DNA of 49,520 bases, from the NCBI GenBank assembly GCA_025923455.1, contig JAICFW010000058.1:1-49520 (forward strand), written 5' to 3'. Position numbers and translations under genes: made by a program. Shown one piece after another: positions 520 to 40,837 of the stretch (within the stretch, counting starts at the first letter, position 1; each line of letters starts with the position of its first letter). The stretch comes from Nitrososphaeraceae archaeon. GTDB taxonomy: Archaea > Thermoproteota > Nitrososphaeria > Nitrososphaerales > Nitrososphaeraceae. The notes beneath the pieces are model-generated. The model ran no database searches and was not told where the DNA came from. It saw only the letters and a program-made list of their open reading frames with translations.

Positions 520-610
520 TCCTTATTTTCTAACGAATTTCAAGTATATAATTCGGATGGAACCCTCATCTAGAACGTACTTCTCTTGATTATTTAGGCA
601 ATGATAAAAT

Positions 611-690
611 ATAAAAAAGTTAAAACCTGCCTGGGATTCGGACGGCTAGATAAAAAACATCCTTCCTCCCAAACAGGCTTAAAAGAAGGA
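611..690 (-). repeat. dispersed hairpin element, copy 1 (5' part)
   Basis: On the minus strand an outer stem pairs CCTGTTTGGGA (677-667) with TCCCAGGCAGG (636-626), with two G-U pairs. Inside it GGAT pairs with GTCC. The stem is followed by GGTTTTAACTTTTTTATA. The same block occurs at 31504-31575 and, without the first arm, at 38161-38219. Similarity to the 31.5 kb copy continues through GAAGGA and AATAAATAATT toward the neighbouring stop codon. The second hairpin found about 42 nt downstream in other copies is not clear here. The block lies just 3' of the small gene at 762-1007, so it may also act as its terminator. Confidence 0.75.
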
Positions 691-30892: not shown

Positions 30893-31019
30893 TTACTCTT
30901 AATAGCTTAAAATATTGGTTATATATTTTATGTAAGTGATTAAACTAGTTAGTTCTTTACTATCTATTTTCAATAAACGAGAGGTATGCAGGTGCTTGAA
31001 CCAAAACAATATTCCGTTC

Positions 31020-31244
31020 CTAATATTCAATCAAAAGTGATGCACACTTGTCAATAAACGCCTCATAATCTGAATCGATTTCCTTTTTGTTATACGAAAT
31101 TCTGCAATAATCATGCGAGTGAAATACATCGTCAATCACATTACATTTGTTACAAGTCCAATGAACATATTCCATACAAGTATTGCAGGTGGCACTAGGA
31201 ACTAAATAATTTCCACATCCTCTGCATAATTCTTTGTTATACAC
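31020..31244 (-). CDS. small Cys/His zinc-binding protein
   Basis: The 74-residue protein has C7-x2-C10 (LCRGCG), C20-x2-C23 (TCNTC), a WTCNKC pair, and HSHDYC, so up to seven Cys and three His can bind two zinc ions in a RING- or B-box-like crossed layout. The C-terminal part (DSDYEAFIDKCASLLIEY) is a helix. It may work as a protein- or RNA-binding module. Its 5' neighbour region holds the hairpin element. Confidence 0.65.
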   Translation of the reverse strand: MYNKELCRGCGNYLVPSATCNTCMEYVHWTCNKCNVIDDVFHSHDYCRISYNKKEIDSDYEAFIDKCASLLIEY

Positions 31245-31414
31245 AATACTGATAATTGATTGCTCGTAATAGATTTAGTGAATGTGATTCATTTAGACGA
31301 TATTTGACTATGTTGAGAAATTATTGAATGTACGTTATTTAATGAAAATACAGCAATCTATGTTATGGCTACTATACCCATTATTATGATATTAAACCAT
31401 TAAATTTATCGAAA

Positions 31415-31590
31415 ACTGTGTAGGCCCTGAATGGTAGCGATAGAATATTGTTGGCCCACGCAGTCTGAGTTCTTCATTTGCGTAATAGTAATTCCTCACT
31501 AAATTATAAAAAAGTTAAAACCTGGCTGGGATTGGGATTGATGCATAAAAATGATCCTTCCTCCCAACCAGGCTTTGAAAGAAGGAATAA
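31415..31590 (-). repeat. dispersed hairpin element, copy 2 (most complete)
   Basis: Read on the minus strand: outer stem CCTGGTTGGGA (31572-31562) with TCCCAGCCAGG (31531-31521); inner GGAT with ATCC; then GGTTTTAACTTTTTTATA; about 40 nt later a second hairpin ACTGCGTGGGCC (31464-31453) with GGCCTACACAGT (31426-31415) around a loop containing AACA and ATTCAG. The 38.2 kb copy has the same order and spacing. It lies 3' of the small secreted gene at 31622-31819. The element fills most of the gene-free stretch 31245-31621; nothing else is seen there. Confidence 0.8.
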
Positions 31591-31621
31591 TTTTTTGAGA
31601 ATAAGTGAAATAAATAATTAA

Positions 31622-31819
31622 CTAATCTTTATAGCATTTACCGTCGGCCGATAGATCATTTTTCTGTTCCTTTTCGCACATCTTGTGCGTATCAAAACAA
31701 ACGTAACCTTCCTGATCTTCATCATAACAATACTCATGTGAATCAGAATATGCGTTATTCGGTATCGACATAGAGCCAAAAATGATAGCCATAGCAACAA
31801 ATAGTACTGTTATGTTCAA
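31622..31819 (-). CDS. small secreted four-Cys protein (YCYD family, member 1)
   Basis: The 65-residue protein has a signal peptide (ITVLFVAMAIIFGSMSIPNNAYS) and a mature part HEYCYDEDQEGYVCFDTHKMCEKEQKNDLSADGKCYKD. Four Cys in a C-x9-C-x6-C-x13-C layout could form two disulfides. A tandem paralogue lies upstream at 31983-32189 and a frameshifted one at 45804-46016. The start is TTG, with an in-frame stop two codons before it. The family is not known to me. Confidence 0.7.
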   Translation of the reverse strand: MNITVLFVAMAIIFGSMSIPNNAYSDSHEYCYDEDQEGYVCFDTHKMCEKEQKNDLSADGKCYKD

Positions 31820-31916
31820 CCATTATCAATTGTTATAATACTAATTAAACGTTGTACAGTCTCATTAAAGTTAATTTAAATAATTAACTCTGAGGGGAAG
31901 CAATTTGGAAGCATGG

Positions 31917-31936
31917 AACTGAGCCTCCCATCAGTT
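31917..31936. other. short perfect hairpin between YCYD paralogues
   Basis: AACTGA (31917-31922) pairs with TCAGTT (31931-31936) around an 8-nt loop, GCCTCCCA. It follows an A/T-rich run downstream of the 31983-32189 gene and may help end its transcript. Confidence 0.35.
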
Positions 31937-31982
31937 TGTTTGAAAGTTGATAAAATATCGTAAAAATATTATAAAAAATTTC

Positions 31983-32189
31983 CTACTCTGTGGAATTATA
32001 GCATTTACTTTCTGCTAATAAATCATTTTTCTGCTCATTTTCGCAAACCTTTTTGGTTTCAAAACAAATGAAGCCCTCCATATCTTGATCGTAACAATAA
32101 ATACTTGGTGTAGCAGCGGATACAATTCCAGTTAATACGATCGTACCGATAAACGTGGAGATAATCAAAAAGACATTAAGAATTCTCAT
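31983..32189 (-). CDS. small secreted four-Cys protein (YCYD family, member 2)
   Basis: The 68-residue protein has a signal peptide (ILNVFLIISTFIGTIVLTGIVSA) and the mature motif IYCYDQDMEGFICFETKKVCENEQKNDLLAESKCYNSTE. The Cys spacing equals that of member 1, and YCYD, GF/YxCF, K.C, EQKNDL and KCY are shared. The two genes are a tandem pair on the same strand about 160 bp apart, which suggests local duplication. Small secreted disulfide proteins can be cell-surface factors, inhibitors or toxins; none of these is shown here. Confidence 0.72.
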   Translation of the reverse strand: MRILNVFLIISTFIGTIVLTGIVSAATPSIYCYDQDMEGFICFETKKVCENEQKNDLLAESKCYNSTE

Positions 32190-32294
32190 TACTAAAATAT
32201 GACAACATAGTTTAATATCAATAGTCAGAAATTCTCATTTTCTATTTCTTTCAATTGCTTATAGTGTTCAGGTGTTCAAATATAATAATATACA

Positions 32295-32339
32295 CCGATG
32301 GGGTTTTGATCCAATAGAATTCTATGAAGCCCCCATCGG
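32295..32339. other. hairpin with an inner palindrome
   Basis: CCGATGGGG (32295-32303) pairs perfectly with CCCCATCGG (32331-32339). The loop contains a 12-bp perfect palindrome, ATAGAATTCTAT (32314-32325), so a three-way structure is possible. It lies in the 350-bp gap 32190-32539, close to hairpin element copy 4. Confidence 0.5.
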
Positions 32340-32426
32340 CGGTTATATGGTGAGTTCGTTTGCGTTATATACATATGAGCAACATATTATAAAAAAATTC
32401 AGCGAATTAAGCAACGACCGAAACCC

Positions 32427-32526
32427 GATGGGCCATCCGACCGCTCTTCAGGCCCACCAGTAATGGAAGTTGGGATTGGTGTTCTTGTTGGAAAAACTAT
32501 GCTCAATAAATTATAAAAAAGTGAAC
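32427..32526 (-). repeat. dispersed hairpin element, copy 4 (partial)
   Basis: On the minus strand the segment 32526-32500 (ACTTTTTTATAATTTATTGAG) matches the tail that follows the first stem at 31504-31520. About 39 nt later CTGGTGGGCC (32460-32451) can pair with GGCCCATCGG (32434-32425) with two G-U pairs, matching the second hairpin of the other copies. The first stem is missing. The element lies just 3' of the gene at 32540-32830. Confidence 0.55.
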
Positions 32527-32539
32527 AAAAAAGGAAAGA

Positions 32540-32830
32540 TTAGAGGGGATCGCCTGAAGTCCCCTGGTTCTTATCTCTCTTTACGGCGGTAGGCTCATGT
32601 GAAGCAATATCTTCCGGATTCATCGGTTCTTTGCCTCCAGATTCATTATATTGTCTGTTTCCAGCGTCTTCGTTAGCTGTATAAGAGTCAGAATCTGTTA
32701 CTCTTTCTGCAGTGTCATCAACTGCTTCCTTAACTCCCTGTGCAGTGCCGCCAACTACGTCCTTAACTCCCTCTCCGGCTTCCTTAAAGCCCTTTTTTAC
32801 TTTATCAAAAGCCTTTTCTTCTTCATTCAT
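32540..32830 (-). CDS. hydrophilic stress-type protein (CsbD/LEA-like)
   Basis: The 96-residue protein is extremely hydrophilic, rich in Glu, Lys, Asp, Gly and Ala, with repeated helix-like units (FDKVKKGFKEAGEGVKDVVGGTAQGVKEAVDDTAERV) that resemble CsbD and LEA-type desiccation proteins. The C-terminal half (NPEDIASHEPTAVKRDKNQGTSGDPL) is disordered. Such proteins protect cells under drying, heat or osmotic stress. That role matches a soil archaeon and the nearby repair genes, but is inference. Confidence 0.68.
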   Translation of the reverse strand: MNEEEKAFDKVKKGFKEAGEGVKDVVGGTAQGVKEAVDDTAERVTDSDSYTANEDAGNRQYNESGGKEPMNPEDIASHEPTAVKRDKNQGTSGDPL

Positions 32831-32970
32831 GATAAACTCACTACAACAAGTTATTTAACGCTTCAGCCGGTTCGCAAGACTCCGGAAGTGTTTCATTTAT
32901 GGTAACATGAGAATTAAATGTGTCGGCGTGCAAACAAATTGTTAAATTTAATATTGCAAATAATCGAAAT

Positions 32971-33201
32971 ATGGAAGAAACAATAGACTGGAAGAATGTC
33001 ATCAAAAAAGAAGCACGTGGTATAAATGACTTCGATTTGGGAGAGGTTCAAGAGGTAAGCGGGGAACAAGTAATAACTAAAAAAGGGATCGTTGATAAGG
33101 ACAAGTTTTATTTACCTAAAAGTAAAGTGAACAGTTTTGATGGCGACAAACTACGGTTTGAAGTTACTAAAGAAGAGGCCGAGATCTATAGACGCGACTA
33201 G
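32971..33201 (+). CDS. PRC-barrel-like small protein (copy 2)
   Basis: From the ATG at 32971 the product is 76 residues: METTIDW-type start (MEETIDWKNVIKKEARGINDFDLGEVQEVSG is split over two strands of the barrel), then TKKGIVDKDKFYLPK and FEVTKEEAEIYRRD. It is about 55 percent identical to the protein at 28811-29041 by eye. An in-frame TTG farther up (32920) would add 17 unlike residues and is less likely. Function unknown. Confidence 0.75.
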   Translation: MEETIDWKNVIKKEARGINDFDLGEVQEVSGEQVITKKGIVDKDKFYLPKSKVNSFDGDKLRFEVTKEEAEIYRRD

Positions 33202-33206
33202 CCTAG

Positions 33207-33380
33207 TCACATTCTTTTGATTTGATCTTTACATACTTGATAGAATACCCAATCCAAAATCCGCAATTCGCTATCTAAAATATCGGATTCAAATATAGAA
33301 TCTTTCTTCTTTATTTCCTGTATAGTTTCATTCATCCTAGATTCAATAAGACTACAAATTTCCACATTCGGATTTTTCAT
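33207..33380 (-). CDS. possible small helical protein
   Basis: From the ATG at 33380 the product is 57 residues: MKNPNVEICSLIESRMNETIQ followed by a Lys/Glu helix and ending RILDWVFYQVCKDQIKRM. The frame stays open upstream for about 35 more codons, with protein-like sequence (FYTPPLIGDTDLKKRIELINWV), but no standard start codon is present there. Either a rare start is used or the gene is decayed. Confidence 0.4.
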   Translation of the reverse strand: MKNPNVEICSLIESRMNETIQEIKKKDSIFESDILDSELRILDWVFYQVCKDQIKRM

Positions 33381-33506
33381 ATTTTCTAGAACCCAGTTAA
33401 TTAATTCAATCCTCTTTTTGAGATCTGTATCACCGATAAGTGGAGGGGTATAGAAAAGAAAGAACGTTCTTAAAATCTTTATTTAGGTGAGACTGTCAAT
33501 TATGCT

Positions 33507-33641
33507 ATGTCAAGACCATTCGGACCATTCGGACCAAGTGGACCTCCTGGCCCTATATGTTTGAAATGTCATCGCGCTGTAGATCATAATTGGAAGTGTA
33601 AAAACAAAAACTGTCCAAATTACAAAATAGGGTGGAGGTAA
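33507..33641 (+). CDS. 44-residue Pro/Gly-rich zinc-knuckle protein
   Basis: ATG to TAA encodes 44 residues. The first 16 are collagen-like (MSRPFGPFGPSGPPGP); the rest is a small metal module C18-x2-C21-x9-C31-x4-C36 with extra H22 and H27. FGP and GPP triplets are repeated at the DNA level. It lies between minus-strand small genes. Function unknown. Confidence 0.6.
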   Translation: MSRPFGPFGPSGPPGPICLKCHRAVDHNWKCKNKNCPNYKIGWR

Positions 33642-33700
33642 GAAGGACTTGGATAAATTATGGATAAATTAATTTAATCGCGTTTGATTTATGATGCGAA

Positions 33701-33874
33701 TCAAGAAGTTCGTGTTTTCTCATAAGATAGAAGATAAGCGCCCGCCACGACCATAACAAGGCCAATTATACCAACCGTATACGAATAAGGTCCTCCTTCC
33801 GCCATTAAATTATTAAAGTTCCAGTTTGATCCGACAAGTGTACCTATTCCACTAACTATGAAACCTACGAGCAT
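33701..33874 (-). CDS. 57-residue two-span membrane protein
   Basis: The product has two hydrophobic spans (MLVGFIVSGIGTLVG and YTVGIIGLVMVVAGAYLLS) joined by a polar loop (SNWNFNNLMAEGGPYS), ending YEKTRTS. The even spans and short basic tail look like a genuine miniprotein. An in-frame stop lies six codons upstream. Family not recognised. Confidence 0.55.
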   Translation of the reverse strand: MLVGFIVSGIGTLVGSNWNFNNLMAEGGPYSYTVGIIGLVMVVAGAYLLSYEKTRTS

Positions 33875-33984
33875 CCCAATATCTGTATCTTATTCATCCT
33901 CGGTCGTCCGTTTTTATAAAATCACTTTTGCTTAGTACGTTTCTCCATATCTGCGACCTGATCAAAATAAAACAAAATCTGATC

Positions 33985-34107
33985 TTATTCTTTAAGAGTA
34001 AACTCAGGACATCCACACCAACAATTAAGGTATGTCTTCGGGCCTATACTTTTGGCATGTTTCCCAGCAAGATGGCCACACCGGCAAATATCGAAATCAG
34101 AAGCCAT
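33985..34107 (-). CDS. 40-residue Cys/His-rich putative zinc protein
   Basis: ATG to TAA encodes 40 residues with C8-x-C10-x-H12-x4-H17 (CRCGHLAGKH) and C29-x-C31-x-C33 (CWCGC), enough for one or two metal ions. The layout matches the protein at 15439-15630 (C...CRH...H then CRCSH). It lies 250 bp before ligD on the opposite strand. Function unknown. Confidence 0.6.
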   Translation of the reverse strand: MASDFDICRCGHLAGKHAKSIGPKTYLNCWCGCPEFTLKE

Positions 34108-34356
34108 TAATTTAAATACAAATAGAAGTGTGTCAATATTGGTTTAAAAACTATTTACATACAATCTATTCTTGATACTAACAGAGAAAATGCACAATAT
34201 TTCTTTATAATGGACATATGAATACCCTAACTCACCTTTCTATAAGGCAATAACTAATCACTTAAAAACTAATTAAGATTACTTTTCTCTTTCTGATGCT
34301 AATATGGCGCATGACTTTTAAAATGGTGCAGACCGACAAGTTCACCTATTTTTATT

Positions 34357-37071
34357 TTGTATTGCAAGTACAATTGTGGATCGCCAGAAGGAGTGAGTGA
34401 AACGAGAAAACCTAACACGGCGCTGGTCAGTTATAATAAGAAAAGAGACTTTGAAAAAACGAGTGAACCCAAGGGAGTAATAAACCCTAGTGAGAAAAGT
34501 ACGAAATTAAGAGATTTTGTTGTCCAGAAACATGATGCGTCTCACCTTCACTATGACTTTAGACTGGAATCTGAGGATGGTGTTCTAAAATCTTGGGCGG
34601 TACCCAAAGGACCTTCAATGGATTCCACCATCAAGAGACTGGCAGTATTGGTCGAAGATCATCCTCTAGACTATCTACACTTCGAAGGAACAATAGAACC
34701 CGGAAATTACGGCGCTGGTACGGTGATAGTGTGGGACACTGGAAGTTATACCAGTAAAGAGAACCTTTTACAGCAAATGGAAAAAGGAAAAATCTCAGTT
34801 GAACTCTTTGGGAACAAACTAAAGGGTCTGTTTTCTTTGGTCAAAACTAAGAGGGATAATCAATGGTTGTTGATTAAATCGAAAGATCAATACGCATCAA
34901 GCCAAGATGTAACAACCGAACAACCAGATTCCGTCTTGACTAGCAGGTCGAATTCGGACATTGAAAATGAAAGCATTAACAAGAGAAATAAAAGGAAACT
35001 CAAGACTAATAATCTCACATCTTCTATTGATTCTAAGAACGATAAACAAACAATAAGTTTTCAAAGAATAAAACCTATGCTCGCTTCGCCATTTGAAAAA
35101 GCCTTTAATCGCAAAAATTGGGTATTTGAAATTAAATGGGACGGTGTAAGGGCAATTGTGTTCAAGAATAGAAAGAATTTTAAGATTCAGTCGAGAAATG
35201 GTAACGATATTACAGATAAATATCCTGAAATATTAAACGACTTAAAACTCTCGCTGAAAGAATGTGAGTCTGTCGTAGTAGACGGTGAGATAGTTGTCCT
35301 AAATCAGGAAGGCGTCCCAGATTTTCACGCCCATCAACACAGAATGCATGTTCAAAATAGTAGAGAGATAATGGCTCTTTCTGTAGAAACTCCTGCGACC
35401 TATTACATTTTTGATGTACTGTATAAAGATGGCAAGGATGTTAAATCCCTAGGTTATATCAAAAGGCGAAGAACGTTATTAAGTATAGTAAGGATAAATA
35501 AATCAATTAGAATATCCGACTATATTGAAGAAAAAGGAGTGCAGGTGTTTGAGAATAGTAAGAAATTAGGCCTTGAAGGAATAGTAGCCAAACATAAAGA
35601 TAGTATGTACACAGAGGGTATAAGGTCCAAAGATTGGTTGAAAATAAAGAACACCAAGACGCAAGACTGTGTAATTGTAGGTTATACAAAAGGAGAAGGC
35701 GCTAGAGGCAGATATTTTGGATCGCTCGTGCTGGCTGTATACTCTACGCAAGAAAGAAAATTAAAGTTTGCGGGGCATGTAGGGACTGGCTTTGATGATG
35801 AAACTCTTGAAACTGTATATGCCAGGATCAAAGGCTACGAAATTGCATCTCCTCCGGTAGATAAAGTTCCCTACCTCAATCGTAAAACGACCTGGCTGAA
35901 GCCGATAAATATTGCCGAAGTAAAATTTGGCGAGTGGACCAAGGATGGAATATTGAGGGCACCCGTCTTCTTAAGAATTCGCGAAGACAAAAGACCCGAA
36001 GAGTGCATTACTGAAGCGGACAATCCTACTGACAGTTCTCAAATTAGAATCAATAAAAAGAGTGAAAATAGCACTAGTATTACCAGTGCCAATAAAGTAA
36101 AGTTAACAAATCCCGATAAGATATACTGGAAGGCCACGAAGGATCATCCCAGGTTTCTGAAGAGGGATCTAATAGAATATTATGAGCGCATTAGCGCCTG
36201 GATATTACCACATTTAAAAGATAGACCTCTTTCCCTTAGCCGTTATCCAAATGGAATCAGCGGTAATTCATTCTATCAAAAAGATTGGGATAAGAAAAAG
36301 CCAGACTTTGTAACTACAGCAAAAATTCATTCTGAACAAAGAGGAGATAGTATTAACTACATTATTTGTAACAACATGGAGAGTCTTCTTTGGATAGCGA
36401 ATTTGGGATGTATTGAGATGCATCCGTGGTACAGTAGAATTAAAGAGTTTGACAAGTGCAGCACCTCCACTCAAATGTTTGAAGAAAAATGTGGACTTAA
36501 TTTTCCTGACTTTATTGTTTTTGATCTAGATCCGTACATCTATTCTGGTAAAGAAAAAAAAGGGCAGGAACCAGAATACAACGCAGCCGGGTTTAAAGCC
36601 GCAGTAGAAATTGCTTATGAATTAAGAGATATTTTAGAAGGGCTGAAAATCCACTGCTATGTAAAAACATCGGGAAAGTCAGGATTGCATATTTATGTTC
36701 CTATTTCCAATACTTATCCCTATGAACAAACCAAGAATTTTGCTGAGGTAATGGCCAAAATGATGGTTTCAAAATTTCCAAACAAAGTTACAACGGAATG
36801 GAATACTTCAAAGAGGAAAGGCAAAGTATTTTTCGACTATAATCAAAATGCGAGGGGCAAAACAATAGCGTCTGTTTACTCCTTACGTCCTACTCCAACG
36901 GCAACCGTTTCAATGCCTATTTCTTGGAAAAAATTGGATTCCATCTTTCCGACTGATTATAATATATTAACTATCTCGAAAATTATTAGGAGCGATGGTC
37001 CCTGGCAAAATATTCTCTCAGATAAGCAAGACCTTAAAAAAATAATTTCTGAAATGAAAGAGATAGTCTAG
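34357..37071 (+). CDS. ligD: LigD: ATP-dependent DNA ligase D (PE-LIG-POL)
   Basis: The 904-residue protein has all three LigD domains in the order phosphoesterase, ligase, polymerase. PE (about 47-180) has VVQKHDASHLHYDFRLE and GNYGAGTVIVWD. A polar linker (180-235) follows. LIG (about 236-550) has adenylated Lys K260 in FEIKWDGVRA, then VDGEIV and EGIVAKHKDS. POL (about 580-900) has DLDP (723-726), H778 in SGKSGLHIYVP, and SVYSLRP. It seals double-strand breaks with Ku (27206-27991). The start is TTG at 34357; an in-frame GTG at 34393 lies close to a GGAG. The large size and order match the multi-domain bacterial type rather than the separate enzymes described in Methanocella. Confidence 0.95.
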   Translation: MYCKYNCGSPEGVSETRKPNTALVSYNKKRDFEKTSEPKGVINPSEKSTKLRDFVVQKHDASHLHYDFRLESEDGVLKSWAVPKGPSMDSTIKRLAVLVEDHPLDYLHFEGTIEPGNYGAGTVIVWDTGSYTSKENLLQQMEKGKISVELFGNKLKGLFSLVKTKRDNQWLLIKSKDQYASSQDVTTEQPDSVLTSRSNSDIENESINKRNKRKLKTNNLTSSIDSKNDKQTISFQRIKPMLASPFEKAFNRKNWVFEIKWDGVRAIVFKNRKNFKIQSRNGNDITDKYPEILNDLKLSLKECESVVVDGEIVVLNQEGVPDFHAHQHRMHVQNSREIMALSVETPATYYIFDVLYKDGKDVKSLGYIKRRRTLLSIVRINKSIRISDYIEEKGVQVFENSKKLGLEGIVAKHKDSMYTEGIRSKDWLKIKNTKTQDCVIVGYTKGEGARGRYFGSLVLAVYSTQERKLKFAGHVGTGFDDETLETVYARIKGYEIASPPVDKVPYLNRKTTWLKPINIAEVKFGEWTKDGILRAPVFLRIREDKRPEECITEADNPTDSSQIRINKKSENSTSITSANKVKLTNPDKIYWKATKDHPRFLKRDLIEYYERISAWILPHLKDRPLSLSRYPNGISGNSFYQKDWDKKKPDFVTTAKIHSEQRGDSINYIICNNMESLLWIANLGCIEMHPWYSRIKEFDKCSTSTQMFEEKCGLNFPDFIVFDLDPYIYSGKEKKGQEPEYNAAGFKAAVEIAYELRDILEGLKIHCYVKTSGKSGLHIYVPISNTYPYEQTKNFAEVMAKMMVSKFPNKVTTEWNTSKRKGKVFFDYNQNARGKTIASVYSLRPTPTATVSMPISWKKLDSIFPTDYNILTISKIIRSDGPWQNILSDKQDLKKIISEMKEIV

Positions 37072-37717: not shown

Positions 37718-37809
37718 GTATATACCATAATATCATTAGTGATATCTCTCATACAAAGCTAAATCCCTATCTTTTTTTATATTGAAAAAAGTAAAGTTTA
37801 CTGTTAGTC

Positions 37810-38217
37810 TTGAAACTTTACATCGGTTGTAGCGGCTGGAGTTATACTTCTTGGCAGGGTCCCTTTTACCCTCAAAATATGGAGAATAGGGCATGGCTGC
37901 CGTATTATTCTCAAATTTTTAACTATGTAGAAATAGATTCCACTTTTTACAATATTCCAAGTGAATTAATGGTAAAAAATTGGGATAAAAGAACTCCTGA
38001 TAATTTTAGATTTACAGCCAAATTTCCTAAAATAATAACACATGATAAGAAATTCAAAAATGTGGAAAATGATTTAGAATTATTCTACAAAAGAATGGAA
38101 CCACTTAAAGATAAGATTTTGTCGTTACTAATACAGTTACCTCCCTCTTACAAAGTTAAAGAAGGACCTTTTTTATTTAGTCCCGTCCTATCTCCCAATC
38201 AGGTTTTAACTTTTTAA
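37810..38217 (+). pseudogene. truncated DUF72 protein
   Basis: The frame opens with the DUF72 pattern (LYIGCSGWSYTSWQGPFYP, then YYSQIFNYVEIDSTFYNIPS, FRFTAKFPKIITHD and LLIQLPPSYKV) but ends after 135 residues where the family usually has 230-260. The last about 18 codons are not family-like and coincide with hairpin element copy 3, which begins at 38161. No continuation of DUF72 is seen in any frame downstream. The start is TTG at 37810, with AGTAAAGTTTACT just upstream. This looks like a gene cut by recombination or insertion at the element. Confidence 0.75.
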
Positions 38218-38303
38218 TATTTTATTGTTCATAATTGAGTAACGTCAAAGCGTCTTACATCGCTGATGGGCCAACCTATCTACTACGATTCAGGGCCCAT
38301 CAG
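38161..38303 (+). repeat. dispersed hairpin element, copy 3
   Basis: The block starts GAAGGACCTTTTTTAT, has GGAC paired with GTCC, CCCAATCAGG and GGTTTTAACTTTTT, and 44 nt later the perfect hairpin CTGATGGGCC (38263-38272) with GGCCCATCAG (38294-38303). Order and spacing equal those at 31415-31575. The first stem arm (CCTG.TTGGGA) is missing and is replaced by DUF72 coding sequence. Both the loop start AAC and the end ATTCAG match the 31.4 kb copy. Confidence 0.8.
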
Positions 38304-38338
38304 TATTCTAAAATCTCTTTAAACAGTAACCGAAACTT

Positions 38339-38872
38339 TCACTCATCTTCACCAGTTTCAGTTTCTTCACTTTCATCCTGTTCCTCTTCTGTGCCATTTT
38401 CTTTTGCCTCATCCTCGACATCTGATTGCAACTGTGCCAAGGTATTGTTACTACTGGTACTGCTGTTATTAGATTGAGAAAGGGCCAATTTGTTTTTTAG
38501 ATTCTCAAGAAATCCCCCCGCTTTTGGACTTGAACTTGAGCCTGTTGATGGATCCTGTAAAACTCCGTTATCTTCCTGGGAATCAGGAGTAGTTATATAC
38601 TGCAGTTCTGGATCTTCACAACTGACTACCGAAAATGAACCATCAGCATCCTTTTGTATAGTGCATGTTTGGCAATACCTCTCTCCGAGAGTTTGGCCAG
38701 GAACATTCTCTCTCCAGCAACAAGTCATTGAAGTATCTCCGCCTGAGCAATTCTTACTATCCCACCATCCTCGTGACGGCGGTACAGCACAAGCATCAGG
38801 TATGGATGAAGCAAAATAAAGAAATGGAACTAACAATATAACGCTAGAAGCAAAAACAGCAGATCTTTGCAC
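38339..38872 (-). CDS. secreted Cys-rich protein with acidic tail
   Basis: The 177-residue protein has a signal peptide (VFASSVILLVPFLYFASSI) and a Cys-rich domain (NCSGGDTSMTCCWRENVPG, then RYCQTCTIQKD and VVSCED), followed by a long Ser/Asn/Glu-rich tail (from about residue 100) ending EETETGEDE. Seven or eight Cys probably form disulfides outside the cell. A similar design, with an acidic linker, appears at 39402. Family not recognised. Confidence 0.7.
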   Translation of the reverse strand: MQRSAVFASSVILLVPFLYFASSIPDACAVPPSRGWWDSKNCSGGDTSMTCCWRENVPGQTLGERYCQTCTIQKDADGSFSVVSCEDPELQYITTPDSQEDNGVLQDPSTGSSSSPKAGGFLENLKNKLALSQSNNSSTSSNNTLAQLQSDVEDEAKENGTEEEQDESEETETGEDE

Positions 38873-38958
38873 GAATAGTATTCATCTTGTCTTTTATAAA
38901 AACTTTGGAGGTTTGAATGTTACCCTTGTGACCTGGAAGGTAAAAGTCGGCGGATAAA

Positions 38959-39099
38959 TTAACGATCAAGAAGCAATCCTATTAACGTACCAAAGGCGAC
39001 AATCGACCCTATCGCCACTATCAAGCCTATTAACTTTAGGTGATCCTTGTATGACTTAATTTTCTCACCAGACGGCTTGTATCCTTTCGGAAGGGTCAC
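38959..39099 (-). CDS. 46-residue single-span membrane protein
   Basis: A GTG start gives TLPKGYKPSGEKIKSYKDHLK, then one span (LIGLIVAIGSIVAFGTLIGLLL) ending DR. A basic, cytosolic head followed by a Gly-rich span is typical of small membrane subunits. A stop lies five codons upstream in frame, so a start near here is required. No family assigned. Confidence 0.5.
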   Translation of the reverse strand: MTLPKGYKPSGEKIKSYKDHLKLIGLIVAIGSIVAFGTLIGLLLDR

Positions 39100-39401
39100 A
39101 TCATCAAATATTTGTTACCATTTAATAAATTCGTCGGATAATAGTTGTTCTATAGACGTGGTTCAATTTAGCAATTCAAGGATTTAGAATACAAAGTGCT
39201 TTTAGGAGAGGGAGCGTATAATTTGGTCTTCGATCTTCAAGAAAATTTTCTTTAATATTTTTGGAATGATATTCACTTTCAAACAAACTGACGCGAGGTA
39301 ATTCATTCTACCTTCATTCCATAGAAAAATACTTTTATGCATATACGCTATTAACCTATTCAACGAATAGAATCATCAAATACGGACTAGTATCTCCTTT
39401 A
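39100..39401. other. intergenic stretch without recognised gene
   Basis: AT-rich sequence with a TATA-like run near 39335-39350 that probably serves the gene at 39402. No repeat, RNA or further gene is seen. Confidence 0.4.
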
Positions 39402-40046
39402 ATGTTTCTTCTAGCAGTAAGTCTTGTATTTACCGGCGAATATTCGAAAGGACAAAGTACAAGTGATGTTTCTAAATTTAGTACACGGCCCGATATTGGA
39501 ACAGAAGAAGAACCAACAATAAACGATGATGCAGAAGAGGAAGAAACAATGGAAGATGATGAGACAGAGCCGACGGATGAGGAAGAAAATGATACCGTTA
39601 CAAGCGTACCTCCCAAGAGATCTTTTGGAGCAGATTTGGGGTTAGACAATCTCACCACAGCACCCACAGAGGAACCCGCGAAACTGATATTCAGTTCATG
39701 CCAAAAAGATTTCCCTAATCCTATACGTGCCGAAGATATTAATAGATATAGACCAATTAGTTGTAATGTACCAGGTGCTTCCCCAAATGATAATGTCGTA
39801 GTTTCTAACACACCACTTGACCCTCGTGGGTGTAATTTCATAGCCTCTTCACGAGTTTCGGCGCCAAATAATGTATCTATTCTATTGTTTGACGGAAGAG
39901 GAACTCCGGAGAGTTTTGTGAAGGGCGTGGAGAGAGGCGGCTTGCATGGCCATGAGGCACATTGCGATAGGCTGTGGATAAAAGGTACAGTGATATTTTC
40001 CATTATTGTATTCCGTCCGGAAGTGCCGATATTATCGGTTCATTAG
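39402..40046 (+). CDS. secreted acidic protein, C-terminus possibly frameshifted
   Basis: The 214-residue frame has a short signal-like start (FLLAVSLVFTGEYSKG). The hydrophobic part also extends upstream of the ATG (IIKYGLVSPLMFLLA) without a standard start codon. An acidic linker (EEEPTINDDAEEEETMEDDETEP) leads to a folded domain with Cys in FSSCQKDF, ISCNVPG, RGCNF and AHCDR. The last about 23 residues look unlike the rest. In another frame the DNA reads YCIPSGSADIIGSLEELQDKNR and stops at 40073, suggesting a frameshift near 39970. Confidence 0.6.
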   Translation: MFLLAVSLVFTGEYSKGQSTSDVSKFSTRPDIGTEEEPTINDDAEEEETMEDDETEPTDEEENDTVTSVPPKRSFGADLGLDNLTTAPTEEPAKLIFSSCQKDFPNPIRAEDINRYRPISCNVPGASPNDNVVVSNTPLDPRGCNFIASSRVSAPNNVSILLFDGRGTPESFVKGVERGGLHGHEAHCDRLWIKGTVIFSIIVFRPEVPILSVH

Positions 40047-40289
40047 AAGAATTACAAGATAAAAATAGATAAAGACTAAATTACTTTGATTTATGGATGT
40101 CTTTTTCACTTCTGCCTTCTTTCCTAATATCTATTATTTTTGAGTGTTACAAGCGAGTGAAACAAATAGCAAACATGTAGAATGTTTATTGAAGTGGGTG
40201 AAAAACTTACATACATCTGTACAAAGTATTAGTATCACCTTGAAAATTGTCTATGCGACTGTCATGTGCTTAATATTATTATTTCGTTT
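40047..40289. other. gene-poor stretch, first part
   Basis: No convincing gene is seen. A frame from 40144 contains a signal-like run (MCLILLFRLAIFSL) that could be the start of a decayed small secreted protein continued by another frame in the next segment. Confidence 0.3.
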
Positions 40290-40445
40290 AGCGATATTTT
40301 CCCTGTGTGGGAAGTCTCTGGGAGACCTGCAGGATTTGTTCCGAGTTGCAAAGATGGATGCAACAGGCATCCAATCACTGCAGGCCCTGGGGTGGATGCA
40401 TGTCCTGGGGTGGAAACACAATGCATTTTCGGAACCCACTTAGAT
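40290..40445. other. GC-rich island with short repeats
   Basis: This segment is clearly richer in G and C than its flanks. It has two copies of CCTGGGGTGGA (40384-40411), two of CTGCAGG, and small hairpins GTCTC/GAGAC and TGGATGC/GCATCCA. One plus-strand frame reads a Cys-rich peptide (PSCKDGCNRHP, then DACPGVETQC and VCQC), without a good start. It may be a decayed secreted protein or foreign DNA. From 40446 to 40833 I see nothing further. Confidence 0.35.
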
Positions 40446-40837
40446 GTAAGTGTATGTCAATGTGTTCGAAATTAAATACCTCCTTAGATACCTGTTGCCC
40501 GATTTCTTGAATAAAATCACGAAGTTTAAAGTACGCTTCCCTTTTCATTTATTATCAGTTCAAAGTGTTTTTGACAGTACTTTTGGATTCTTGTTATCTT
40601 TGGGTACTTATTTCCAACCTGGACTGACCTGTTTAGTGGCAAAAGCATCAGAAGTATTACTTAAAAACGTCTGAATATCTAGCAATTAAACGCCTTTTCA
40701 TTGATATGGAGACGACCTGGACTGTTGTCACCGGTCCATTTTTAGTGTCACAAACTGCCATTTCCTGAGCACGAAAAAATCGATATATTCGATTTTCCTA
40801 AAAATAGACGTTTAATAACACATACGCGTCTTAAAAT

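What the first reader, a model, noticed from the sequence alone, without database searches (positions are those of the whole stretch)
31415..31590. Dispersed multi-hairpin element with paired changes between copies
Four related blocks (611-690, 31415-31590, 32427-32526, 38161-38303) share an order: outer stem CCTG..TGGGA/TCCCA..CAGG, inner GGA(C/T)/(G/A)TCC, GGTTTTAACTTTTTTATA, a 39-44 nt spacer, then a hairpin (CTGATGGGCC/GGCCCATCAG type). The inner stem is U-G in copy 1, U-A in copy 2 and C-G in copy 3, and the second hairpin changes A-U to G-U in copy 4. Pairing is kept only when read in one orientation, so the element probably acts as RNA. It may be a small non-autonomous mobile element, an omega-RNA-like remnant or a new ncRNA/terminator class. 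I cannot name a known family.
Basis: partly seen in the sequence, partly recalled or inferred. Interest (0 to 1): 0.85.

Follow-up and report, generated by a model that had tools for sequence, protein, structure and literature searches.

The report
Family of tiny archaeal hairpin-RNA genes
The repeated hairpin blocks look like members of a previously undescribed family of very small RNA genes, each with its own promoter, scattered and sometimes lined up in tandem in one genus of (apparently) soil ammonia-oxidising archaea; what the RNAs do is not known.

Summary
The window holds five full units, one decayed unit and three related 'D' units (one truncated). A covariance model finds about 120 copies in 11 of 12 genomes of the genus and one weak hit in 58 other genomes of the family. 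All ten stem pairs show changes on both sides (158 cells against 45 in shuffles).

The conserved GTTTTAACTTTTTTATA block is not part of the RNA fold. Read on the RNA strand it is an archaeal promoter: AA at -33/-32, TATA at about -28 to -20, CATA at about -10, pyrimidine at -1 and A at +1 (position 34). Small-protein genes with the same block have their ATG at that position. Each unit is thus best read as a promoter, a roughly 24-nt A/C-rich leader and a GC-rich hairpin, giving an RNA of about 54-78 nt.

IS200/IS605, omega-RNA, integron attC and Rfam membership are not supported. Several copies lie in recently inserted islands, but nothing shows that units move by themselves. Transcription and function are inferred, not shown.

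The parts
38208..38303 (+). A-type RNA gene: promoter 38208-38233, predicted start about 38241, leader, hairpin 38263-38303
   Evidence: cmsearch R1 78.8 bits, R2 73.8 bits; RNA fold z -4.9
32425..32523 (-). A-type RNA gene: promoter at 32523-32498, predicted start about 32490, hairpin 32425-32460
   Evidence: R1 69.8 bits; RNA fold z -1.3
32293..32399 (-).
   Evidence: R1 45 bits, R2 57 bits; fold z -3.3
31890..31981 (-).
   Evidence: R2 50.1 bits
31521..31623 (-). D-type RNA gene: promoter TTAATTATTTATTTCAC, hairpin CCUGGUUGGGA/UCCCAGCCAGG with possible UCCUUC/GAAGGA pseudoknot
   Evidence: alignment A3 and pair counts; fold z -3.9
31416..31516 (-). A-type RNA gene directly downstream of the D unit; predicted start about 31483
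   Evidence: R1 39.9 bits, R2 48.8 bits
626..724 (-).
   Evidence: 80% identical to 31521-31623, A3
530..621 (-). decayed A-type unit: promoter block intact, hairpin largely lost
   Evidence: R2 18.9 bits, E 0.23
38166..38203 (+). 3' half of a D unit fused to the truncated DUF72 ORF
   Evidence: sequence comparison with intact D units; DUF72 matches only profile positions 1-96 of 217
30921..34135 (.). island holding five units, absent at the matching place in three related genomes; flanked by AATATTGGTT
37720..40834 (.). island holding the 38208 unit, absent in three related genomes; flanked by a 20-bp direct repeat AAATTTTACATTTGTAAAGT

Best explanation
Each unit is a minimal non-coding RNA gene. 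An archaeal promoter (AA..TTTATAAT-TTGTTG-CATA) starts transcription at position 34. The transcript is an unpaired A/C-rich leader of about 24 nt followed by a GC-rich hairpin of 27-51 nt, about 54-78 nt in all. The family has multiplied within one genus by tandem and segmental duplication. The most likely role is trans-acting regulation, with the leader as the contact region and the hairpin as a stabilising and perhaps terminating 3' end. Supported by sequence evidence: promoter geometry and strand, base-pairing selection, family and range. Inferred: that the RNA is made, its exact 3' end, and its regulatory role.
For: Strand: G.U 128 against A.C 21 in 115 copies. In copies recruited by the 20-nt block alone it is 33 against 7, with hairpins in 32 of 61 against 0 of 61 shuffled. 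Covariation: 10 of 10 pairs change on both sides, 158 cells against 44.7 in shuffles, 0/500. In D units 7 of 11 outer pairs change on both sides. Promoter: Y-A-R at positions 33-35 in 38% of block-only copies, against 2-16% at other positions. The spacing (AA -33/-32, TATA about -28 to -20, CATA about -10, pyrimidine -1) fits archaeal promoters as described in PMC5316973. Small-protein genes with the same block have ATG at position 34, and LEA-like, DUF2171 and small secreted-protein genes show RTTG followed by 13-15 nt and ATG. Leaders form subfamilies shared between species while the loops do not align. Range: 120 hits in 11 of 12 genus genomes, 1 in 58 others.
Against: No transcript data. 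U enrichment after the hairpin is weak. A promoter matrix made from tRNA upstream regions was inconclusive and scored the opposite orientation higher. A 21-nt leader core has no antisense target in the genome at up to 3 mismatches, so only short seeds could act. Copies are related, so G.U and pair counts are not fully independent.
Confidence: 0.72

Rival explanations
1. Punctuation element: promoter plus hairpin act in cis, ending the upstream transcript and supplying an attenuated promoter for the next gene.
For: In the 30.9-34.1 kb island genes and units alternate on one strand, and promoters start right after stop codons. U is mildly enriched after hairpins. The same promoter class drives nearby protein genes.
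Against: No bias in the orientation of neighbouring genes: 14 against 11 on one side, 17 against 10 on the other. Tandem arrays of up to four units have no gene in between. Leaders are conserved in subfamilies.
Confidence: 0.2
2. Non-autonomous mobile element (MITE- or REP-like) that happens to carry a promoter and a palindrome.
For: Dispersed, multicopy, intergenic, genus-restricted; units abut each other. Units lie in islands missing from relatives.
Against: The copies are diverged (best other copy in this genome 87% over about 100 nt; mean column identity 50%). No single-unit empty site or target duplication was found. No Y1 transposase. The islands carry genes and are much larger than a unit.
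Confidence: 0.1
3. Single-strand DNA recombination site, integron attC-like: gene cassettes shuffled at folded bottom-strand hairpins.
For: Mosaic of small genes shared between unrelated places; one-strand folding; GTTAA-like junctions.
Against: Hairpin ends are CTG/CAG, not RYYYAAC/GTTRRRY. The block has promoter geometry and leaderless genes use it. Breaks of similarity near the blocks (25% against 4%) follow from the repeats themselves. No IntI search was made.
Confidence: 0.04
4. Omega-RNA-like remnant of IS200/IS605 or TnpB elements.
For: One TnpB-like ORF in this genome and fragments in one relative.
Against: Nine other genomes of the genus carry the units without TnpB, and Y1 is absent. 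The hairpin is at the 3' end and no guide region follows it.
Confidence: 0.01

Closest known systems
Multi-copy small regulatory RNA families of bacteria (for example Qrr, LhrC; from memory)
   Same: Several short, independently promoted, related RNAs per genome with unpaired segments and a terminal hairpin
   Different: Archaeal promoter, no described chaperone, no sequence similarity found; targets unknown
Archaeal intergenic ncRNAs with TATA/BRE/PPE promoters (86 reported in Thermococcus onnurineus, PMC5316973)
   Same: Intergenic, same promoter geometry
   Different: Here one homologous family with about 2-23 copies per genome, some in tandem arrays, restricted to one genus
REP/MITE/PATE palindromic repeats
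   Same: Short dispersed intergenic palindromes
   Different: Each unit has a promoter with a defined start; pairing is kept on one strand only; no Y1 transposase; no single-unit insertions seen
Integron attC sites, also known in Archaea (PMC9668308)
   Same: Imperfect palindromes that fold on one strand, near small genes
   Different: No core boxes; variable hairpin ends at CTG/CAG; promoter function evident

Membership tests
Any Rfam 15 family | covariance-model score at gathering threshold | tested here: not met
   no hit in the window at gathering; nothing relevant at E<=5 in 31380-32560
Archaeal promoter-driven ncRNA gene | BRE, TATA, -10 A/T element and Y/R start at canonical spacing | tested here: met
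   positional profiles, spacing from PMC5316973, ATG of protein genes at the same position
Archaeal promoter-driven ncRNA gene | a transcript exists | not testable with these tools
   no RNA-seq available here for this genus
Structured RNA | stem conserved by changes on both sides, one strand | tested here: met
IS200/IS605-derived element | Y1 transposase in the genome or close relatives | tested here: not met
   0 of 12 genus genomes over cut-off; controls ring
TnpB omega-RNA | association with tnpB | tested here: not met
   TnpB in 2 of 12 genomes only; units in 11
MITE | single-unit insertion with target duplication | tested here: inconclusive
   only whole islands with 10- and 20-bp direct repeats seen
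Integron attC | RYYYAAC and GTTRRRY boxes pairing at the ends of the folded site | tested here: not met
   hairpin ends inspected in 27-116 copies
Integron | IntI-type tyrosine recombinase | not tested
   only a weak phage-integrase-like ORF next to units in L115 was seen
Intrinsic terminator | U-tract directly after the hairpin | tested here: inconclusive
   T 73% at +1, then about 43-52% over +2 to +6

The most novel reading that the evidence does not exclude
The units are an array-forming guide-RNA system: variable 5' leaders act as address sequences, the common hairpin is the handle for an unknown protein, and the whole set is co-regulated with small stress-type proteins through the same TATA-TTGTTG promoter.
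Probability: 0.06. Interest if true: 0.85.

Novelty: new member of a known kind. Interest (0 to 1): 0.5.

Why it matters
No small-RNA family of this kind turned up in Rfam or in the papers searched, and almost nothing was found on regulatory RNA in ammonia-oxidising archaea. A family of about 120 copies with a predicted start site for each copy can be tested in a single RNA-seq experiment. The shared TATA-TTGTTG promoter also links these RNAs to small stress-type and secreted protein genes, which suggests a common regulon and gives a genus-specific promoter motif.

Tried and rejected
Exact-pattern scan of genome contigs: two chance hits in bacteria. First inverted-repeat scan failed on thresholds; repeated, where window palindromes as a class were barely above shuffles, so recurrence and not raw palindromes is the evidence. 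Reading the tail as a top-strand promoter: tRNA-based matrix inconclusive. It was dropped because the start-site signal and the ATGs of protein genes lie on the other strand. Site-specific recombination at tails: break enrichment is explained by the repeats. Antisense target of leader subfamily I: only three matches in the genome, two of them in units and the third beside another unit. Viral contigs: six chance-like matches to block or hairpin patterns; the three block matches gave at best 29.6 bits, mostly from the block alone, and the three hairpin matches were not scored. Box C/D and H/ACA membership considered from memory: no consistent C box, D box or ACA. Genome-wide RTTG-N13-ATG: not general, so the promoter class is specific to some gene families.

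Full report
WHAT IS THERE. The block TATAAAAAAGTTAAAACC occurs three times in the window against 0.38 expected. Comparison with other copies shows that the four blocks are composites of two unit types placed head to tail: D units (stem CCTG..TGGGA/TCCCA..CAGG) and A/B/C units (stem CTGATGGG-type). A covariance model (R1) built from 22 A-type copies finds five strong units in the window: 38208-38303 (+), 32425-32523, 32295-32399, 31416-31516 and 31890-31981 (all -). It also finds one decayed unit at 530-621.

RANGE. The 20-nt block with up to 2 mismatches gives 86 hits in the 12 genomes of the genus against 4 for the reversed control pattern. Model R2, built from 150 matches, gives 120 hits in 11 of 12 genus genomes (2 to 23 per genome over the two searches) and one weak hit in the other 58 genomes of the family. 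Units also form tandem arrays, with up to four consecutive units at a period of about 98 bp.

STRAND AND COVARIATION. In 27 copies taken by consensus, stems hold 29 A.C on the top strand, which read as G.U on the other, against 5 G.U on the top strand. With strand-symmetric scoring in 115 copies it is 128 against 21. Copies recruited by the block alone, with no demand on the hairpin, give 33 against 7, and 32 of 61 have a strong hairpin against 0 of 61 shuffled. In alignment A2, 94.1% of cells pair, all ten pairs show changes on both sides, and 158 cells change on both sides against 44.7 in shuffles (0 of 500; slid structures far lower). A2 was fitted to the model and copies are related, so these numbers lean upward; the block-only test does not share the first bias. 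D units: 7 of 11 outer pairs change on both sides. The inner GGAY/RUCC stem and a possible UCCUUC/GAAGGA pseudoknot show no changes on both sides.

THE BLOCK IS A PROMOTER. Aligned at the block on the RNA strand, positions 1-2 are AA, 6-12 TTTTATA, 17-20 GTTG and 24-26 ATA. After a featureless stretch there is a second peak at 33-36, Y-A-A-C. With block-only recruitment, Y-A-R at 33-35 is found in 38% of copies and in 2-16% at other positions. With +1 at position 34 this gives BRE at -33/-32, TATA at about -28 to -20, a -10 A/T element and a pyrimidine at -1, the spacing reported for archaeal promoters (PMC5316973). Independent calibration: protein genes preceded by the block have ATG at position 34 in several cases. 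Homologues of three small-protein families of the island (LEA-like, DUF2171, secreted 65-aa) have RTTG, then 13 to 15 nt, then ATG in most cases, as leaderless messages would. This spacing is not general in the genome. The predicted RNA from position 34 to the hairpin end is 54-78 nt (5th to 95th percentile, median 65).

ANATOMY OF THE RNA. The leader is A 37%, C 26%, G 14%, T 22%. Leaders fall into subfamilies shared between species (for example AAGTGTCGACAAGTGCCAAGAACACGCGCG and ATAAAYCCGTAACAACGATTCATTC) while the loops of the same copies do not align. This suggests the leader is the constrained part, although over all copies loops too find better partners than shuffled ones do. A search for antisense partners of one leader core in the genome found three matches, two in units and one beside a unit.

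CONTEXT. Units are intergenic, with no bias in the orientation of neighbours. The 30921-34135 island (five units) and the 37720-40834 island (one unit plus a truncated DUF72 gene) are absent in three relatives each, at sites with direct repeats of 10 and 20 bp. So some copies arrived on larger insertions; no insertion of a single unit was seen.

ALTERNATIVES. No Rfam family. No Y1 transposase in the genus. TnpB does not track the units. Integron attC core boxes are missing. A cis role as terminator plus promoter remains possible, especially since some units begin right after stop codons.

CONCLUSION. Best reading: a genus-specific family of tiny promoter-leader-hairpin RNA genes. Promoter, strand, fold and range rest on sequence statistics. 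Transcription, the 3' end and the regulatory role are inferred.

Noticed in passing
window 30921-34135 and 37720-40834: Two islands of about 3.2 and 3.1 kb missing from related genomes; the second is flanked by a 20-bp direct repeat with dyad TTTACA-TT-TGTAAA, the first by AATATTGGTT. They may be integrated by an unknown recombinase.
   Followed up: partly
window 37810-38217: DUF72 gene cut at profile position 96 of 217 and joined to half a D unit at an AGAAGG/GGAAGG micro-homology; related DUF72 stretches lie at many other places in the genus.
   Followed up: partly
window 34357-37071: 904-aa LigD-type protein (3'-phosphoesterase, ligase, primase-polymerase) in an archaeon, in DNA shared with relatives, between two islands.
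   Followed up: no
window 31622-31819, 31983-32189, 32540-32830, 32970-33201: Small-protein families (secreted Cys-containing, LEA-like, DUF2171-like) that recur at many places in the genus and share a TATA-TTGTTG promoter with ATG 13-15 nt after TTG.
   Followed up: partly
L101 14703 and 14822 (another genus, g9): The CAACAAATTATAAAA block recurs at 119-bp spacing with different hairpins (ACCAGGC..GCCTGGT); possibly a distant version of the same arrangement.
   Followed up: no
L115 307-1017: Tyrosine-recombinase-like ORF (weak match to archaeal phage integrase) close to an array of units.
   Followed up: no
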